From a virus, in IMG/VR virus record IMGVR_UViG_3300028840_008153, positions 1 through 64,000 of that record: 64,000 nt of DNA, one strand, 5' to 3'. The notes under the pieces are model-generated. The model did no database searches, was not told the origin of the DNA, and saw nothing but the letters and a program-made list of their open reading frames with translations. Below, in pieces: positions 930 to 46,597 of the stretch (position 1 is its first letter; each line of letters begins with the position of its first letter). A program made the translations under genes and the position numbers.

Positions 930-1000
930 TGGCACGAGCCGGGATCGAACCGACCAAGCACGTCCACCGCTGTGCTTTCAGGCGCCGCTGCCCTCGTGCC
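930..1000 (-). tRNA. tRNA-like element, anticodon arm non-canonical (type unassigned)
   Basis: On the minus strand a perfect 7-bp acceptor stem (GGCACGA/TCGTGCC) encloses a good T arm (stem GTCGG/CCGGC, loop TTCGATC) and a one-base discriminator A; CCA is not encoded. Only 39 nt lie between acceptor and T arm. They can form a weak 3-bp D stem (CAG/CTG) and a 6-bp stem (AAGCAC/GTGCTT) closing a 10-nt loop instead of 7. No anticodon can be assigned. The element sits in the operon, abutting the stop codon of the gene before it and 17 nt ahead of the next ATG. Confidence 0.5.
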
Positions 1001-4537: not shown

Positions 4538-5113
4538 CTAATCGAACGTGTATCCGAAGTTGCGGATGTCCTCCACGTAACGCTCCTCAACCCAGCGGCG
4601 GGCCTCCGCGTTGTACATCTCCTGGTAGGGCCGGTGGGCCCGCCGCTCCTCGAAGACCTCCTCCGGCACCTCCCGTTCGAGCAACCGACAGATCCAGATC
4701 AGATCCCTATGGAGCGTCTCGAACCGCCCGACATACCGGCACGGAAGAATGAAGTGACTGCAGGGCCGGTGCATGGCCATGCCCTTGGACACGTAATGCG
4801 GCCTGCCGGACGTGTCCGGGCAGTCGTTCTGGAGCCAGTCCATAAACAGGGTCTGATCATCCAGCTGCTCGGCGTTGATGCGCGCACAGATGGACACGAG
4901 ACGATCCCACGGGTTACGAACGAACCCGAAGGTAAACATTCGCCTCCACCGCTCGGTGCCGAAACGCCTGACCAGCCACCACGCGGGCGCGTGCCCGAAG
5001 TAATGCTCTTCGGGGTTGGCTTTCTTGCCCTGATGGGACCGCAGGCCAAGCATGATCGACAGCGACGTGCTCGCCGTCCTCGGAGTACAGAGCATGCACC
5101 AGTCTTTAATCAT
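4538..5113 (-). CDS. Sulfotransferase-family protein, 191 aa
   Basis: Sulfotransferases move sulfate from PAPS to a hydroxyl, often on a sugar. The N-terminal TPRTASTSLSIML fits the PAPS 5'-phosphosulfate loop and FGFVRNPWDRLVS fits the 3'-phosphate-binding motif of the Sulfotransfer_2 type. Histidines between them (EEHYFGH) could act in catalysis. It is short compared with cellular enzymes (about 250 aa or more), so it is a minimal form. AAGGAGAT precedes the ATG, right after the second tRNA-like element. The substrate is unknown; phage or host glycans are plausible. Confidence 0.75.
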   Translation of the reverse strand: MIKDWCMLCTPRTASTSLSIMLGLRSHQGKKANPEEHYFGHAPAWWLVRRFGTERWRRMFTFGFVRNPWDRLVSICARINAEQLDDQTLFMDWLQNDCPDTSGRPHYVSKGMAMHRPCSHFILPCRYVGRFETLHRDLIWICRLLEREVPEEVFEERRAHRPYQEMYNAEARRWVEERYVEDIRNFGYTFD

Positions 5114-5131
5114 GAGATCTCCTTGAAAAGC

Positions 5132-5207
5132 CCCACGCCGTGGGAGTCGAACCCGCCACAGGAATTTGGCCGCCCACCGCTCACCTGTTCGAGCGGCTCC
5201 GGCGTGG
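5132..5207 (-). tRNA. Second tRNA-like element, anticodon arm non-canonical; overlaps a CDS end
   Basis: The minus strand has a 7- to 8-bp acceptor stem (CCACGCC/GGCGTGG), a 6-bp D stem (CCGCTC/GAGCGG) with a GG-containing 8-nt loop, and a T arm with loop TTCGACT and one mismatch. The 76-nt length is normal, but the anticodon region cannot form a 5-bp stem with a 7-nt loop; the best fold gives 2 bp around CCAAATT, and no anticodon is assignable. The first 27 nt also encode the end of the upstream protein. The next gene's ribosome site follows directly. Confidence 0.5.
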
Positions 5208-5552
5208 GACCGGTTTCTTTTTGCTTCTGAGCGGCTTCATCTCTATCGTGTCGCCAGCTCGGATCTTGTAGCTGCGACTTCGTTTTCTCCCATTCACCCA
5301 GAATCGAACTTCCTCCAGCGGCGAGCAGTTCGCAAACTCTCGTATGACGTCTATGGCCTCAAACTTGGCTAAAGGCGCCCCGATGAGCTTCGGACTCTGA
5401 ATGGTTATCATGTTGAACCGAAACTTAAACAGGACGCCGCCGTAATCCTTCAGCATGGCCATCCGCGCTTCCTCTTGCGCTTGTAGGTCTTTCACGTAGG
5501 TAGTGATAACCCTCAGCGCCTGATCTATCGCCACGCCATCTACCATGCTCAC
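5181..5552 (-). CDS. Small basic-tailed protein, paralogue of the upstream gene, 123 aa
   Basis: The C-terminal half (FWVNGRKRSRSYKIRAGDTI) matches that of the 115-aa gene just upstream (RVNGRVRQTHYVVKAGDTV), and both share an N-terminal helical domain, so the two are tandem duplicates. The VNGR...AGDTVEV pattern recalls small RNA-binding (S4-like) folds, but this is tentative. GTG at 5552 is preferred because AGGAGG lies 5 nt upstream; an ATG lies at 5546. The last nine codons run into the tRNA-like element. Confidence 0.6.
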   Translation of the reverse strand: MSMVDGVAIDQALRVITTYVKDLQAQEEARMAMLKDYGGVLFKFRFNMITIQSPKLIGAPLAKFEAIDVIREFANCSPLEEVRFWVNGRKRSRSYKIRAGDTIEMKPLRSKKKPVPRRSRSNR

Positions 5553-5896
5553 GCGTGCCTCCTGCTGTAGGGCCTGATCACTTCCACGGTGTCGCCAGCC
5601 TTGACCACGTAGTGGGTCTGCCTCACCCTGCCGTTCACCCGGAAGCGGTAATGCTTCGGTCGTTCCGCAGCGATGATCCGCCCGGCACTCGTGCGCCAGA
5701 AGCTGGACAGGCGCGTCCCGACGAGCTTCCCGCCGTTCAACGTGAGCGTGTTGTTCCGAAACCGCACGGTCACCGCGTTGTATGCCTTCAGGATCTTGGC
5801 TTCCGCCTTCTCTGCCGCCTTGGTATCGTCCACGTACTGGCCGATTGCCATCAGGGCCTGCTGCATGGTCATGTAATCAGTCGTGTTCTCGCTCAT
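5549..5896 (-). CDS. Paralogue of the downstream gene, 115 aa
   Basis: Begins SENTTDYMTMQQALMAIGQY and ends with the shared HYVVKAGDTVEVI segment. The middle (VRFRNNTLTLNGGKLVGTRL) aligns by eye with FKFRFNMITIQSPKLIGAPL of its neighbour. The ATG at 5896 overlaps the methyltransferase stop (ATGA) with a GGGAGAGAG site. Function unknown; the duplication suggests a paired or dosage-related role. Confidence 0.65.
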   Translation of the reverse strand: MSENTTDYMTMQQALMAIGQYVDDTKAAEKAEAKILKAYNAVTVRFRNNTLTLNGGKLVGTRLSSFWRTSAGRIIAAERPKHYRFRVNGRVRQTHYVVKAGDTVEVIRPYSRRHA

Positions 5897-6327
5897 GTCT
5901 CTCTCCCTATCACGTAGGTCTCGTATCTGCAGTTTCTCCACAGGCGCGGCTCATCGAGAACCACCTCGATTTGATACCCCCATGAAGTCTTCCTCCACCC
6001 CCGGATGTCACGACGCACGGTCACGTACGACTTGCCTCCAGGCGCCAAAAGCTCCCTGATCTCCTCGATAACTTGTGCACGGTCCCAAGGGAGCCAGATC
6101 GTGTTGAGGACATACGTGCACGTTATGGTGTCGAATGTGCCTTCGGGCTTGGTGGGAAACGAGACGCTGTCGTACTTCTCGGCACCGACGATGTCGGCGT
6201 CCTCGCCTCGTCCACACCCGAAGTCCAGGATTCTGCCTACAACCAGTTCGGCTTCACAAAGCCTTCTCATGGGGGCGGACAGCCCCCCACGCCTGATCGC
6301 CGATCGGTGGAACCGACGGGCGCTCAT
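5893..6327 (-). CDS. SAM-dependent methyltransferase (class I), 144 aa
   Basis: Motif I ILDFGCGRGEDADIVGA, an acidic strand FDTITCTYVLNTI and LLAPGGKSYVTVRRD are the ordered hallmarks of a class I Rossmann methyltransferase. At 144 aa it is compact and lacks an obvious target-recognition domain, so the substrate (DNA, protein, sugar or small molecule) cannot be named. It overlaps both neighbours by ATGA. Confidence 0.8.
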   Translation of the reverse strand: MSARRFHRSAIRRGGLSAPMRRLCEAELVVGRILDFGCGRGEDADIVGAEKYDSVSFPTKPEGTFDTITCTYVLNTIWLPWDRAQVIEEIRELLAPGGKSYVTVRRDIRGWRKTSWGYQIEVVLDEPRLWRNCRYETYVIGRET

Positions 6328-9226: not shown

Positions 9227-11048
9227 GATGACCTCCACTTCTGATACTGAACTCACCTCATACAAGAACATCGCCCGGCTCAGAGAAGAGATGAATGCCG
9301 GGCAGCCGGTTGACGAGTTGACCGCTCTCAAGACCTTCGTGGACTTCTACAAGACCAGGCCCGACACGCTCGTGCCGATCCTGGGCCTGCTCAACTTGAA
9401 AGGCCGGCCGTACTCGCTCAGGGATCATTTTGCAATGGAGCCGCTGTTCAAACTGCGGCTCCCCCGGCGGATGCTGTTCATGTGTGGCCGCCAGATCAGC
9501 AAATCGACTTCACTGGCGGCTTCCGGCATTCTGCGCGCGGCGTGTCAGCCGCATTTGTCAACGCTCGTGATAACGCCGCGCTTCGAGCAGTTGCGCCGGC
9601 TTTCGTCCAATTACTTCGCCCCCTTCATGACCAAAAGTCCCATCGTTAACGTCATGACGGATGAAAGTTGTACGAAACAGGTCCTCCAGCGGACCTTCTC
9701 GAACGGTTCCTCGGTTTTCTTCAGCTTTGCGTTCTTGGACTGCGATCGGGTCCGGGGGCTCAGTTGTGATTGGATCGACTACGACGAGGTGCAGGATCTG
9801 GATTACGAATTCCTTCCGATCATTCACGAATGCATGTCGGCCTCCAAGCTGCGGATGTCCCTCTACTCCGGTACGCCGAAGACACTGGACAACACCATCC
9901 AGGCGCTGTGGGAGGAATCCTCCCAGGCCCAGTGGGTCATCCCGTGCAGCTTGTGCGGAAAGTGGAACATGGCCACGGTGCATGAAGACCTTCTCAAAAT
10001 GATCGGCAGAAAGACCTTGGTGTGTGCGAAATGCCAGCGCCCGATCAATGCGCGCGCGGGACACTGGTATCACACGGTCAAGGCGAATATGGCCAAGTTT
10101 CAGGCTTACCACATCCCCCAGCCCATAATGCCCATGCACTATGAGGATTCGGAGAAGTGGGGCGAGCTGATTGACAAGCGTGACGGTAAGAACAATTACG
10201 ATCAGGCGCGGTTCTACAATGAGGTCCTTGGTGAAAGCTGCGACGTTGGAAACAAGCTGGTCACGATCACGGACATCAAGAAGGCTTCACGTTTGGGCGT
10301 TAATGACCTTGAGAAATGCATTGACGAGTTTCGACGTTGTAACGTTAGGGTGCTGGGAGTCGACTGGGGCGGCGGCGGGGAGGACGAGGTCTCCTTCACC
10401 ACGGCTGCGCTGGTCGGACTCCGGTCGGACGGGAAAATCGGATGTTCCTACGCGGTCCGCTTCCACGCGGGGTTCACCCACGATGAAGAGGCCCGGGCAC
10501 TGTTGCGGTTGTTCAAGGAGGGCGCCTGCCACTACTTCGCCCATGACTACGGCGGATCGGGAAGCGTGCGCGAGACCCTGATGATCCAGGCGGGCCTGCC
10601 GATCGACCGCATCGTCAACTTCATGTATGTCCGGGCGACCGCCCGGAACATGGTCCACTGGAAGCCCCCGCACGCCGGTGAGATGCGCGGGTACTTCGCG
10701 CTGGACAAGGCCCGCTCTCTGGTGCTGCAGGCCACCTGCATCAAGGGCAACGTGATCTGGCTGCCCGAGTACGAATCGAGCAAGAACGTCACCCACGATC
10801 TGCTGGCGCTGCTCGAAGACAAGCACGAGATGCCGAAGGGGGCCGATATCTACCTCGTGCGCAAGCAGCCCAAACTCCCCGATGATTTCGCGCATGCGCT
10901 CAATTATGGCTGCGTGGCTATCTGGCACATGACCAAGCGCTACCCGGACCTGAGTTCGATCCAGGGGATCAAACTGACGTCCCAGCAGCTGAGCCTGTCC
11001 TCGCCGCCCGACATGGAGGCGCTCCGCCGCACGTTGCCGCAGGAGTGA
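9219..11048 (+). CDS. Terminase large subunit, GpA-type, 609 aa
   Basis: This packaging motor translocates DNA into proheads and cuts it. The ATPase half has a variant Walker A (CGRQISKST, residues ~85-95) and Walker B (WIDYDEVQ, ~185). A zinc-ribbon insertion follows (CSLCGKWN...CAKCQRP), as in lambda GpA relatives. The nuclease half has VLGVDWGGGG (~380), HDYGGSG (~445) and a late DDFAHALNY acidic site. The length is normal. ATG 9219 has GGAAGA 8 nt upstream; ATG 9189 and 9225 are alternatives. Unlike most neighbours it is on the plus strand. Confidence 0.92.
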   Translation: MVMMTSTSDTELTSYKNIARLREEMNAGQPVDELTALKTFVDFYKTRPDTLVPILGLLNLKGRPYSLRDHFAMEPLFKLRLPRRMLFMCGRQISKSTSLAASGILRAACQPHLSTLVITPRFEQLRRLSSNYFAPFMTKSPIVNVMTDESCTKQVLQRTFSNGSSVFFSFAFLDCDRVRGLSCDWIDYDEVQDLDYEFLPIIHECMSASKLRMSLYSGTPKTLDNTIQALWEESSQAQWVIPCSLCGKWNMATVHEDLLKMIGRKTLVCAKCQRPINARAGHWYHTVKANMAKFQAYHIPQPIMPMHYEDSEKWGELIDKRDGKNNYDQARFYNEVLGESCDVGNKLVTITDIKKASRLGVNDLEKCIDEFRRCNVRVLGVDWGGGGEDEVSFTTAALVGLRSDGKIGCSYAVRFHAGFTHDEEARALLRLFKEGACHYFAHDYGGSGSVRETLMIQAGLPIDRIVNFMYVRATARNMVHWKPPHAGEMRGYFALDKARSLVLQATCIKGNVIWLPEYESSKNVTHDLLALLEDKHEMPKGADIYLVRKQPKLPDDFAHALNYGCVAIWHMTKRYPDLSSIQGIKLTSQQLSLSSPPDMEALRRTLPQE

Positions 11049-11069
11049 TTTCGGAACCGGTTCCCAAAT
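11049..11069. promoter_or_regulatory. Operator-like palindrome, copy 1
   Basis: TTTCGGAACCGGTTCCCAA: the 12-bp core GGAACCGGTTCC (11053-11064) is a perfect palindrome, starting 5 nt after the terminase stop. It is one of five related sites in the window (also near 15474, 29010, 40753 and 58912). Confidence 0.45.
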
Positions 11070-11091
11070 AGCTAAGGAAAATCAGAGGCCC

Positions 11092-11115
11092 GCCCTGGTG
11101 CCGGAGCACCAGGGC
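11092..11115. terminator. Hairpin between convergent terminase and zinc-protein genes
   Basis: A perfect 10-bp stem GCCCTGGTGC/GCACCAGGGC with loop CGGA lies between the convergent terminase and the gene ending at 11168. On the minus strand it is followed after a few bases by a T-rich TGATTTTCCTTAGC. It may end transcription from either side. Confidence 0.55.
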
Positions 11116-11167
11116 AAGCCCTGCTGCATTATCGGACGACATTGAGTCTTGCCTACTCTGCTCCCTA

Positions 11168-11368
11168 TTAAGCGGCTTTTTTGCACTCGTCGCACAAAGG
11201 GCCTTCCTCCGAACAGCTCCAGCCCATGCGCTCGGCGTCACGGGCGAGGATGTCGGCAGCGCTTTCTCCGGGGTCTCCCAGGCGAAGACCGCCGCAGCGC
11301 GTGCAGCATATGAGATTGTCCTCATCGCCGACTTTTACGAACTTTCGCAACTTCGTGGCCTCGCACAT
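11168..11368 (-). CDS. Small double zinc-ribbon protein, 66 aa
   Basis: Cysteine pairs CCTRC and CDEC, with two further cysteines (MCEA, WSCSEE), suggest one or two zinc sites. The ribosome leader CAGGAGAAACAAA recurs before other small genes of this region. Convergent with the terminase. No specific family recognised. Confidence 0.65.
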   Translation of the reverse strand: MCEATKLRKFVKVGDEDNLICCTRCGGLRLGDPGESAADILARDAERMGWSCSEEGPLCDECKKAA

Positions 11369-11401
11369 TTTGTTTCTCCTGACTACCCCTGAGGGTTAAA
11401 G

Positions 11402-11440
11402 GAAAGAAAAACTTGCCCCGGCGCGAGAACGCGCCGGGGC
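11402..11440 (-). terminator. Rho-independent terminator
   Basis: On the minus strand an 11-bp GC stem GCCCCGGCGCG/CGCGCCGGGGC with loop TTCT is followed by AAGTTTTTCTTT. It closes the unit containing the gene ending at 11464. Confidence 0.85.
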
Positions 11441-11463
11441 GTGTTGCCACCGACGAGGTTGGT

Positions 11464-11832
11464 TCAGGAGCGGCTGAAGCAGTGTCCACGCGCGCCGCTG
11501 GAGAAATTGCGGCTGCGGCGGGCTTCGTTCAGATCGTCCTCCAGATCCGTCGGCCAGGCCCAGGAGCCGCCGCGCCGGGTGCAGCGCAGGCTGGTTGCCA
11601 GGGCGTCGTAGCCGATGTCGAAGAGCCGGCCAAAGTGGTCGCGCTCCTTGCGCGCCTTTTCGCCGCGCTCGCTGAAGACGCCGGAGCGCCGGTATTCGTC
11701 GTTGGCGCGAGTGGCCATCCGAACGATCAGCTTGAGCTTCTCCACCTTGGCTCGCGCGCTGACGTTGGCGCCGACGATGTAGTTGCGCACCTCACGTTCC
11801 GAAGTCCTGGGGGAGATCACGAAAGTGCCCAT
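11464..11832 (-). CDS. Basic hypothetical protein, 122 aa
   Basis: Mostly helical, Arg-rich protein (KVEKLKLIVRMATRANDEYR) with a few cysteines near the end. No family recognised. It is transcribed from the long leader upstream (11833-12201) and ends at a strong terminator. Confidence 0.6.
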   Translation of the reverse strand: MGTFVISPRTSEREVRNYIVGANVSARAKVEKLKLIVRMATRANDEYRRSGVFSERGEKARKERDHFGRLFDIGYDALATSLRCTRRGGSWAWPTDLEDDLNEARRSRNFSSGARGHCFSRS

Positions 11833-12201
11833 CTTACGTCCTTTCTAAGCAGCACCAGGGATAAGCGCCGCCATTTGGAATGCAGGCCCGATGGCGAGAA
11901 CTCCACTTCACCGGACCCGACTTGTTCTTGTTTCCCGGCCGGAACACCCGCACCGGGTCCTGATTTCAACTTGACCCGCTCACGAGCGCACACCGATCAG
12001 CGCCGCTTCCCGCTCACCTCCGTGGTTGGAGCCGGGAGAGATCGATCACTGGCAGATCCGTTTCATCGAAGGTCCGCCGCCCGCATCCGTGGTTGGGGCC
12101 GGCCGAAGCGATCGAGTCCAAGGTCGCCGTGAGTCAGGTCGGGGAGTCCAGATAATTCATCGTGTGTACTTCATACTAGCACGTTTTTGCACGTTTTTTA
12201 G
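11833..12201. other. 370-nt gene-free leader region
   Basis: I see no convincing frame on either strand. Two near-copies of TCCGTGGTTGGRGCCGG lie about 70 nt apart (near 12020 and 12088). Near 12165-12200 the minus strand reads GCTAAAAAA, 15 nt, TAGTAT, a promoter-like arrangement repeated near 13060-13095. A short direct repeat ACGTGC lies between the boxes. Confidence 0.45.
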
Positions 12202-12525
12202 CTACGCAGCGGCTGCCTGCGCCTGCTCGGTGGGAATGTCGAAGAGCTTGCACACCGCGTAACGGGCGTGATCGCCCGCATTGAGCAGTGCATAGGAACA
12301 CGAGAAAATGGCTATCCCGCAAGCGAATCCGGCCAGAAGGCCAACGGCCGGCCACATCACGTGGATGCTATGCAGAATGGTCACGGCGATCGAGGCCCAG
12401 CCCAGCGCGCAGGCGCCACTGACCAAAACCTCGTCAGTCTTGCTGTTGGGCTCGGCCCACAGGGACGACACCAGTGTGATTCCGGCGGCGACGAACAGGA
12501 TTGCAGCGAGAAGAGGTGCGGGCAT
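12202..12525 (-). CDS. Small integral membrane protein, 107 aa
   Basis: Three hydrophobic stretches are evident (LLAAILFVAAGITLVSSLW; ALGWASIAVTILHSI; AVGLLAGFACGIAIFSC), with an Ala-rich tail. The ATG at 12525 sits behind CAGGAGAAACAAA, the shared leader of this cluster. It follows another membrane protein gene. Holin-like or envelope roles are possible, but no family is recognised. Confidence 0.65.
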   Translation of the reverse strand: MPAPLLAAILFVAAGITLVSSLWAEPNSKTDEVLVSGACALGWASIAVTILHSIHVMWPAVGLLAGFACGIAIFSCSYALLNAGDHARYAVCKLFDIPTEQAQAAAA

Positions 12526-12593
12526 TTTGTTTCTCCTGGTTAGAAAGAGGCGGAAAGGGCGAGGGGCCAGCCGAAACCGGCCCCGAGAAAAAC

Positions 12594-12986
12594 TTAATTC
12601 CAAGCGTATCGGGCGTGTCTGACTGCTTGTGCTGCGATGGAGCGCGACGGCGGCACGACCTCAAGTTTGGGAGCCGACGTCAAGACCCAAACGATCGACT
12701 GTGCGAATGTTGACAGGAGCGGGACGCCTACAACAACAAAACCGAGAATGACCCCGATGATACCCACCGTGGCCAGAACGGCCGAGAAGCCGGACACCAC
12801 AGCAAGCACCTGAAGAGCGCCCAACGTGAAAAACCTCAAAGCAAGATACGCGGCAAAGGTGCCGATCGCTGCCGCAACCGCGCGGGCCAGCGTCTGCCAA
12901 CCCTGAACGTTCTCAACGACCCACAGGCCGCCGAGTACCAGCGCCGCCACGGCGGCACAAATCAGCGAGACGATGAAAGGACTCAT
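12594..12986 (-). CDS. Four-segment membrane protein, 130 aa
   Basis: Hydrophobic segments: FIVSLICAAVAALVLGGLW, an Ala-rich second, LGALQVLAVVSGFSAVLATV and IIGVILGFVVVGVPLL. The tail is short and basic. An AACAGGAGAAACATA leader precedes the ATG. A GC hairpin (GGGGCC/GGCCCC, 12563-12584) lies between it and the next membrane protein gene. Not recognised; may work with its neighbours in the cell envelope. Confidence 0.65.
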   Translation of the reverse strand: MSPFIVSLICAAVAALVLGGLWVVENVQGWQTLARAVAAAIGTFAAYLALRFFTLGALQVLAVVSGFSAVLATVGIIGVILGFVVVGVPLLSTFAQSIVWVLTSAPKLEVVPPSRSIAAQAVRHARYAWN

Positions 12987-13123
12987 TATGTTTCTCCTGT
13001 TTAACAGCGGGAAACCGACCCGAGCACGAGGCCGGTTTCCCGTAGGGAAATGTACGTGTGCTCTATGGGATACTACCTCGTTTGAGCCCTTTTTTTAGCC
13101 TTTTGAGGCCCGGCCAAAACGGG
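12987..13123 (-). promoter_or_regulatory. Leader with 10-bp hairpin and promoter-like boxes
   Basis: A perfect stem CGGGAAACCG/CGGTTTCCCG (13008-13017 with 13033-13042) stands just upstream of the ribosome site of the 12986 gene. Further upstream on the minus strand is GCTAAAAAA-15 nt-TAGTAT, matching the layout near 12180. The hairpin could mask or stabilise the leader. Confidence 0.4.
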
Positions 13124-44713: not shown

Positions 44714-46597
44714 TTACGATGTTGGTGCGAAGATCCGATAGCCCATTCGCAGGATTCCGACCGAACCGGCAAAGGAGTCGGTCGACAGCCGACCGATCGA
44801 GAACCAAACGGACTCGCCGTCGGCAACGACGAAGGAGTCCGACACGACCTCCACGTACTGCCCGGCGTCCAGGCTTCCGCACGCGCCCGGATCGAGGTCC
44901 GTCAGACTCGTATCGGTATCAGGCAAGTCTTCCTCGGCACACCCGTTGGGCGGTGACAGGCGGCGGTACGAAAGGGGAAGCGCCGGTAGTACCCCGCTGG
45001 CCCTGGCCAAGACCCAGAAGCGCAGCTCCATTTGGGGATTTTCGATGAGTCCGGCGCTTGGAAGCTCAATGCGCGCGCGAAGATTCGAGTTCCGTCCCGT
45101 GGGGAACGCCAGAAAGAACGTGTCGTCCACCTGCTCCTCGCGCGCGTTGTTCAACGCCACGAGGGTGATGCGCCCTTCTTCCTGCTCTGAACCCGGCAAT
45201 ATGGCATTGACAGTTGCTTCGCCCCGCACCGTACCGTCCGCTTCCACGGACGACATGCCCGTGACAGGGGTCAGCGTGATGTTGGAGCCGGCCTTCAGGC
45301 CGCTGATGACCGGACCTCTCTTGAAGTTCAGACCCTCCACGTCCTTGAAGACCTGGTAGCCCGCCTGACCCTCTTCGGTGGTCAGCGAGAGGTCGATCCC
45401 GATTTGGAGCGCGCCCGTCTCGGCGGGCGTCACGCCGTCACATCCCACGATCGTGATGGGGCTGCCCTCAGCAGGAGTCAGCCGGGTCACGACACTGGTG
45501 TCCGTCTTGATCACCATCTTGGTGAAGTAAAGCCGCATGGCCTTGGCGAACGGGTCGTTGCGCACGAAGCCCATCTGTTCGAGCGTAGGGCCGGACTCGC
45601 AGGCATGGGAAGAGCCGGGAAACTCTGGCGTACCCGACACGCCCGAACTGGAAGAAGACGATGAAGAGCTGGAAGAGGACACGTCACCATCGCACGGGCG
45701 GGGCTCCGTAGGCCACGGGGCACGATTATAACAGCCGTCAAACCACCACAAACCGTGTTGGTCTATCTGGAAGCGGGACGAGGGCACGCCCACCCCGTCG
45801 GCTTCGAGGTATGCCGCTTCGATGGGCAGCGGCGGCCACAGGCGCTGCAACTCCTCATGCTGCGAGAGGTTGTATCCATACACAGCGCCGGAAGGGGCCA
45901 TACTGTTGAAGATGGGGTCGTCAGCCGGAAGCCATCCGGGCTGATCGCTATCCGTACTGGTGAAAACATACTGGGTGTATTGCTGCGGACACTGGACCAG
46001 CCCGGCGGGTTGCGCGTAGAGGTCGAAGGCGTAGTGGATGTGCTCATCCAGCATCTCACGTGGCGAGGGCTGGATGTGTGCCGATCCGTCGCCACGCAGG
46101 AACATCAGGTAAATGCCTACGGGCGGCTGTTGCTTCGTGGCCATCCCGGGGATCGAGGCAGAAAGGTAGTACGCGCCCGCGTCGTCCAGCGAGCTGCCCG
46201 TGGCTCCGATCGTGTTGGTGAAGTCGAAGTCCCGCAGGAAGCCGAACTGGAGCAAATCACCCATCGTGGCCGAAGACTTGGAGATCACAATGCCCGTGGC
46301 AAAGGACGATTCCTTGACCAGATACCCGCCCAGCGTGGTGTCGAATTCAACGGCTGCCAGCGCCGACTTGTAAGCGAGCGTGGTCGAGTCGAAGTAGACG
46401 TAGTGGCCCACCTTCACGGACGAGTCCATCGGAACGCCGCGCAGATAGAGCGCCTCGCTGTCCTGCAGTGCGTCCAGGCGGTCCTTGAGGTGCTGGGTCC
46501 GATCGACGTTCTGGCCGGGCATCCGATTGGCTATGGCCGCACGGACTTCCTCACCATTCTGGATGGGGCGCGTCTGCTGAATCCAAGGGGTAACCAT
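44714..46597 (-). CDS. Large virion protein with twelve-serine tract, 627 aa
   Basis: The N-terminal ~310 residues and C-terminal ~280 residues are separated by twelve serines (DNA 45644-45679) that use all six serine codons. The C-terminal half shows EAGYQVF-type beta structure and YVEVVSDSFVVADGESVWFS. It heads the YP-domain cluster in transcription order. Likely a tail or fibre structural subunit; no family recognised. Confidence 0.65.
   Translation of the reverse strand: MVTPWIQQTRPIQNGEEVRAAIANRMPGQNVDRTQHLKDRLDALQDSEALYLRGVPMDSSVKVGHYVYFDSTTLAYKSALAAVEFDTTLGGYLVKESSFATGIVISKSSATMGDLLQFGFLRDFDFTNTIGATGSSLDDAGAYYLSASIPGMATKQQPPVGIYLMFLRGDGSAHIQPSPREMLDEHIHYAFDLYAQPAGLVQCPQQYTQYVFTSTDSDQPGWLPADDPIFNSMAPSGAVYGYNLSQHEELQRLWPPLPIEAAYLEADGVGVPSSRFQIDQHGLWWFDGCYNRAPWPTEPRPCDGDVSSSSSSSSSSSSGVSGTPEFPGSSHACESGPTLEQMGFVRNDPFAKAMRLYFTKMVIKTDTSVVTRLTPAEGSPITIVGCDGVTPAETGALQIGIDLSLTTEEGQAGYQVFKDVEGLNFKRGPVISGLKAGSNITLTPVTGMSSVEADGTVRGEATVNAILPGSEQEEGRITLVALNNAREEQVDDTFFLAFPTGRNSNLRARIELPSAGLIENPQMELRFWVLARASGVLPALPLSYRRLSPPNGCAEEDLPDTDTSLTDLDPGACGSLDAGQYVEVVSDSFVVADGESVWFSIGRLSTDSFAGSVGILRMGYRIFAPTS

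What the first reader, a model, noticed from the sequence alone, without database searches (positions are those of the whole stretch)
5132..5207. Second tRNA-like element, sharing 27 nt with a coding sequence
It has the same design: intact acceptor, D and T arms, defective anticodon arm, and placement directly before a ribosome site. Its 5' part encodes the end of a 123-aa protein, so excision would remove the stop codon from that message. Two such elements in one operon make simple decay less likely.
Basis: partly seen in the sequence, partly recalled or inferred. Interest (0 to 1): 0.6.

Follow-up and report, generated by a model that had tools for sequence, protein, structure and literature searches.

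The report
Degenerate tRNA gene in phage operon
A stretch between two phage genes is the broken-looking remains of a transfer-RNA gene that can no longer read codons; its odd overlap with the neighbouring gene is normal for tRNA genes in this phage family, so it is real but mostly ordinary.

Summary
The element is real. On the minus strand, 5207-5132 has a perfect 7-bp acceptor stem (11 bp uninterrupted in the fold), a T arm with TTCGACT loop and one C·A mismatch, a 6-bp hairpin in D position and no canonical anticodon arm. No annotation tool calls it. The 27-nt overlap with the 123-aa ORF and the Shine-Dalgarno just downstream are also real.
The layout is not special. In the complete relative G004, 8 of 37 canonical tRNAs overlap the end of an upstream ORF (1-22 nt) and 10 of 37 are followed at once by a ribosome site. 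The element therefore sits in an ordinary tRNA slot and is best read as a degenerate tRNA gene: unable to decode, perhaps still cut by host RNase P. Similar anticodon-defective elements before ribosome sites occur in two relatives, so a retained punctuation role is possible but unproven. No homologues exist here to test stem conservation. Closest precedent: phage T4 RNA C. Attachment-site and Y-RNA readings are rejected. In passing: this phage encodes Ro60 and an array of Y-RNA-like elements outside the window.

The parts
5132..5207 (-). tRNA-like element 2, including discriminator-position G at 5132
5201..5207 (-). acceptor 5' strand CCACGCC; pairing continues to 5210
5133..5139 (-). acceptor 3' strand GGCGTGG; pairing continues to 5130, so no free discriminator or CCA
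5177..5196 (-). 6-bp hairpin in D-arm position (CCGCTC GAACAGGT GAGCGG), GG in loop
5155..5170 (-). 4-bp/8-nt hairpin GCCA AATTCCTG TGGC in anticodon position in the fold; no canonical anticodon arm, no U33
5140..5156 (-). T arm GCGGG TTCGACT CCCAC, one C.A mismatch
5181..5552 (-). 123-aa ORF (P0001) whose last 9 codons incl. TGA are the element's first 27 nt; paralogue of the next gene upstream
5549..5941 (-). 130-aa paralogue (P0003), 38% identical to P0001, lacking its tail
5119..5124 (-). Shine-Dalgarno AAGGAG directly after the element
4538..5113 (-). 191-aa sulfotransferase-like gene downstream (Sulfotransfer_2)
930..1000 (-). tRNA-like element 1 (GGCACGA...TCGTGCC A): 6-bp/10-nt hairpin instead of anticodon arm; abuts upstream stop codon; precedes AAAGGAAAG and ATG at 913

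Best explanation
Element 2 is a degenerate tRNA gene left in an ordinary tRNA slot of a compact minus-strand phage operon. Shown: a tRNA-type acceptor/T half beyond chance, no decoding arm, no detection by tRNA models, and a position (stop codon of the upstream gene inside the 5' part, ribosome site right after the 3' end) that canonical tRNA genes of a relative also occupy. Inferred: it descends from a tRNA gene; it is co-transcribed with its neighbours, folds as a four-arm RNA and cannot decode; its acceptor/T helix may still be cut to some extent by host RNase P, splitting the message between the 123-aa gene and the sulfotransferase gene, as a side effect rather than a selected function. 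Upstream ORF tails reading into tRNA 5' ends are a consequence of tight packing.
For: Only two acceptor+T hits in the genome, null 0.01. T arm and loop are of tRNA type; GCGGG-TTCGACT-CCCGC, one base different, occurs in a canonical G004 tRNA-Thr. G004 carries 39 tRNA matches and G000 one tRNA-Met, so tRNA content differs greatly within the family. G004's canonical tRNAs show the same overlap (8/37) and SD adjacency (10/37). Low-scoring tRNA-like remnants occur in several relatives. P0001's tail beyond residue 105 does not align with its paralogue, as expected if the ORF end was set by what followed it.
Against: The acceptor is perfect in both elements, and both, like L007's, can fold into four arms, which a freely decaying gene need not keep. 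No parental tRNA or intermediate was found. Descent from a tRNA is inferred from about 31 nt of acceptor plus T arm.
Confidence: 0.55

Rival explanations
1. Retained processing element: a former tRNA kept because RNase P (and a 3' endonuclease) cut at it, separating the two cistrons and giving the downstream message a defined 5' end right before its ribosome site (tRNA punctuation without a tRNA).
For: Acceptor/T stack is known to suffice as an RNase P substrate (PMC11143913). In 2.3 Mb of family DNA, 4 of 11 ARAGORN-invisible tRNA-like elements directly precede SD+ORF (two in this phage, one each in L007 and G013), null 0. Perfect acceptor stems.
Against: Canonical tRNAs of the family occupy the same slots (13/44), so position is inherited, not diagnostic. 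Pairing of -1 to -3 with the 3' side and lack of RCCA are poor for RNase P. The C.A in the T stem. No conservation data.
Confidence: 0.25
2. Phage stable RNA with a tRNA-like body and a non-translational role (like T4 RNA C/species 1), for example a decoy for tRNA-acting enzymes or nucleases.
For: T4 rnaC has a T arm and a partial acceptor-like stem, no anticodon arm, and lies in the tRNA cluster. The same phage encodes Ro60 and Y-RNA-like elements, one with a permuted tRNA-like module.
Against: No Ro-binding outer stem here; not detected as any Rfam family; no sequence relatives.
Confidence: 0.1
3. Functional but odd tRNA, tRNA-Sec-like or with an unusual anticodon arm.
For: Best Rfam score is tRNA-Sec (21.3 bits, 9+4 acceptor/T).
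Against: Below the cut-off of 47 bits, no UCA anticodon, no U33, discriminator paired.
Confidence: 0.03
4. Chance, or a structured intergenic hairpin unrelated to tRNA; the acceptor rod extends beyond tRNA limits.
For: Over-extended rod plus an outer GAAA/UUUC helix in the wider fold; z only -2.
Against: Null 0.01 for the acceptor+T combination, and a second hit of the same kind in the same operon.
Confidence: 0.07

Closest known systems
Canonical phage tRNA genes interspersed in early operons (relative G004)
   Same: Same strand relation, slot between genes, upstream stop codon inside the 5' part, SD right after the 3' end; acceptor and T arm of tRNA type
   Different: No canonical D arm, no anticodon arm, paired discriminator, no CCA, not found by tRNA models; overlap 27 nt versus at most 22
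Phage T4 RNA C (species 1 RNA)
   Same: Phage-encoded RNA with T arm and acceptor-like stem but no anticodon arm
   Different: 139 nt, in a compact tRNA cluster, annotated as a small stable RNA; its acceptor is imperfect (5/7 by hand alignment)
YrlA-type Y RNAs (Ro60 partners, tRNA mimics)
   Same: tRNA mimicry; the same phage encodes Ro60 and Y-RNA-like elements
   Different: Y RNA modules are permuted (T arm and 3' acceptor before 5' acceptor) and closed by an outer stem; this element is not

Membership tests
canonical tRNA gene | 7-bp acceptor stem | tested here: met
   7/7 WC, but extended to 11 bp
canonical tRNA gene | 5-bp T stem with TTCRANY loop and G53-C61 | tested here: inconclusive
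   loop and G53-C61 present, one C.A mismatch
canonical tRNA gene | anticodon arm 5 bp + 7 nt with U33 | tested here: not met
   best 3 of 5 pairs, no U33
canonical tRNA gene | recognised by tRNA models | tested here: not met
   ARAGORN none; RF00005 no match at E<=10
tRNA-Sec (RF01852) | score above gathering cut-off and UCA anticodon | tested here: not met
   21.3 versus 47 bits; no UCA
YrlA Y RNA | permuted tRNA module closed by Ro-binding outer stem | tested here: not met
   element not permuted; permuted scan of G000 negative in the window; motif search finds Y-RNA-like elements only at 153-157 kb
T4 RNA C-like stable phage RNA | accumulates as a discrete stable RNA | not testable with these tools
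   needs RNA data
T4 RNA C-like stable phage RNA | T arm and acceptor-like stem without anticodon arm | tested here: met
phage attachment site in a tRNA 3' end | integrase gene and identity to a host tRNA 3' end | tested here: not met
   no PF00589 in G000; no exact 22-nt match in 84,980 genomes
RNase P substrate | 5' cleavage at the acceptor | not testable with these tools
   bench assay needed

The most novel reading that the evidence does not exclude
Some large phages keep anticodon-less tRNAs as programmed cut sites between cistrons, so that RNase P cleavage removes the upstream gene's stop codon and frees the downstream ribosome site: a regulated choice between translating one gene or the next.
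Probability: 0.12. Interest if true: 0.65.

Novelty: new member of a known kind. Interest (0 to 1): 0.3.

Why it matters
If it is only a relic, it shows how tRNA slots in large phage operons decay and why gene finders miss them. If it is retained, it would be operon punctuation by a tRNA body that no longer decodes, testable with one RNase P assay.

Tried and rejected
Integrase attachment site: no integrase, no host tRNA match. Y RNA: wrong topology. tRNA-Sec: below cut-off. Homologues of the element or its flanking proteins: none in IMG/VR or the phage records by the searches run; tblastn of the flanking proteins into about 2 Mb of relatives' DNA gave only a few hits, mostly weak, and none for the 123-aa protein. 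The weak BLAST hit to kutterviruses (E about 1) is a shared T-arm motif in their unannotated tRNA-like cluster, not homology. RtcB absent in 13 family records; RNA ligase PF09511 inconclusive because no control rang. The 'permuted tRNA genes' first seen in relatives were reinterpreted as Y RNAs once Ro60 was found in the same genomes. A third loose hit at 44978 (+) lies antisense within a long ORF and fails the G53-C61 test. Literature on anticodon-less phage tRNAs: nothing found in the open library.

Full report
What is there. The window is the first 64 kb of a 163,142-base IMG/VR virus record, G000. On the minus strand at 5207-5132 the sequence reads CCACGCC GGAG CCGCTC GAACAGGT GAGCGG TGGGCGGCCAAATTCCTGTG GCGGG TTCGACT CCCAC GGCGTGG G. 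It has a perfect acceptor stem, a T arm with one C·A mismatch, a 6-bp hairpin where the D arm would be, and no standard anticodon arm. The fold is a four-way junction of -43.6 kcal/mol, z -2.5. The pairing of the acceptor runs on for three pairs past the tRNA end (5208-5210 with 5130-5132), so the discriminator position is paired and there is no CCA. ARAGORN and Rfam at gathering see nothing.

Is it more than chance? Both lie on the minus strand, both lie between genes, and both are followed by a Shine-Dalgarno and start codon. Over 200 Markov shuffles the mean is 0.01 hits per genome, and none has two. Element 1 folds with all four arms but carries a 6-bp stem with a 10-nt loop in anticodon position.

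Coding overlap. The 123-aa ORF 5181-5552 ends 27 nt inside the element, its TGA at the loop edge of the D-like hairpin. Its upstream neighbour (5549-5941) is a paralogue at 38% identity; the alignment stops at residue 105, so the basic tail that enters the element is not shared. The gene after the element is a sulfotransferase-family protein.

Relatives. The terminase led to 41 IMG/VR loci. The complete circular relative G004 (207,857 b; 51-52% terminase identity) has 39 tRNA matches. Of 37 ARAGORN tRNAs in the two stretches scanned, 8 are overlapped by the end of an SD-led upstream ORF (1-22 nt) and 10 are followed within 11-21 nt by a start codon with SD. One small gene there starts after tRNA-Lys(ttt), which has no CCA, and ends inside tRNA-Ser(cga). 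Over 2.3 Mb of family DNA the looser scan finds 11 ARAGORN-invisible tRNA-like places (null 2.3). Some are Y-RNA modules or real tRNAs. Four directly precede an SD and ORF: the two here, L007 17920-17999 and G013 2701-2777 (null 0).

Mechanism. The best reading is a degenerate tRNA gene in an inherited tRNA slot. RNase P is known to need only the acceptor stem, T stem and T loop (PMC11143913), so residual cleavage is plausible; it would cut the 123-aa message before its stop. This step is inferred, and the paired -1 to -3 region and missing RCCA make the element a poor substrate on paper.

Comparison. T4 RNA C is the nearest precedent: a stable phage RNA with T arm and an acceptor-like stem and no anticodon arm (the 5-of-7 acceptor pairing is read by hand). 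Y RNAs are excluded by topology, an integrase attachment site by absence of an integrase and of a host match.

Side findings. G000 encodes a Ro60 homologue (574 aa at 157201-158925; TROVE and Ro60 vWA domains), followed by tRNA-Met and an array of Y-RNA-like elements at 156635-157071, plus another at 153304-153368. One, 156869-156994, contains a permuted tRNA-like module. Relatives G004, G007 and G008 carry similar permuted modules (6 hits, null 0.6), and each also matches TROVE, though only G007 is over the family cut-off. G007 also has a tmRNA.

Noticed in passing
G000 157201-158925 (-) and 153304-157071 (-), outside the window (L006 13201-14925 and about 9300-13080): Ro60 homologue (TROVE + Ro60 vWA) followed by tRNA-Met and a cluster of Y-RNA-like elements sharing ATGCC...TACATC...CTTTTG[AC]C inside a closing stem; one (156869-156994) carries a permuted tRNA-like module as in YrlA.
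   Followed up: partly
L042 19030-19165 (-), L091 19001-19134, L092 226-361, L098 6288-6422, 7364-7499, 7579-7713: Permuted tRNA-like modules (T arm + 3' acceptor, 5-7 nt linker, 5' acceptor + D arm) in relatives G004, G007, G008; 6 hits versus 0.6 expected. All three records also match TROVE, G004 and G008 below the cut-off. Probably Y RNAs; not called by Rfam at gathering.
   Followed up: partly
L091 17960-18331 (+): tmRNA encoded by phage G007 (76.7 bits), close to its permuted tRNA-like RNAs.
   Followed up: no
L044:3850-4620:- positions 258-412; L011 about 289-443: About 155-nt block beside the kuttervirus tRNA cluster, recurring in parts in hundreds of phage records of several groups and mostly unannotated (724 records match the 771-nt query); weak tmRNA-like Rfam score (22.5 bits, below cut-off).
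   Followed up: no
L044 4512-4573 and 4073-4194 (-); L011 about 470-680: Kuttervirus (Salmonella phage 38) tRNA cluster holds several unannotated tRNA-like elements with missing or oversized anticodon arms.
   Followed up: no
L045 5136-5210 (-): tRNA with CTA anticodon (amber suppressor or Pyl-type call) in G004, apart from its main tRNA cluster.
   Followed up: no
L007 17920-17999 (-): Another ARAGORN-invisible tRNA-like element directly before AAAGGAGATTAAATG; its anticodon-position hairpin GGGG-TTCGATT-CCCC is itself T-arm-like.
   Followed up: partly
window 5181-5941 (-): Tandem paralogous genes P0001/P0003 (38% identity, E 5e-22) without Pfam or PHROG family.
   Followed up: no
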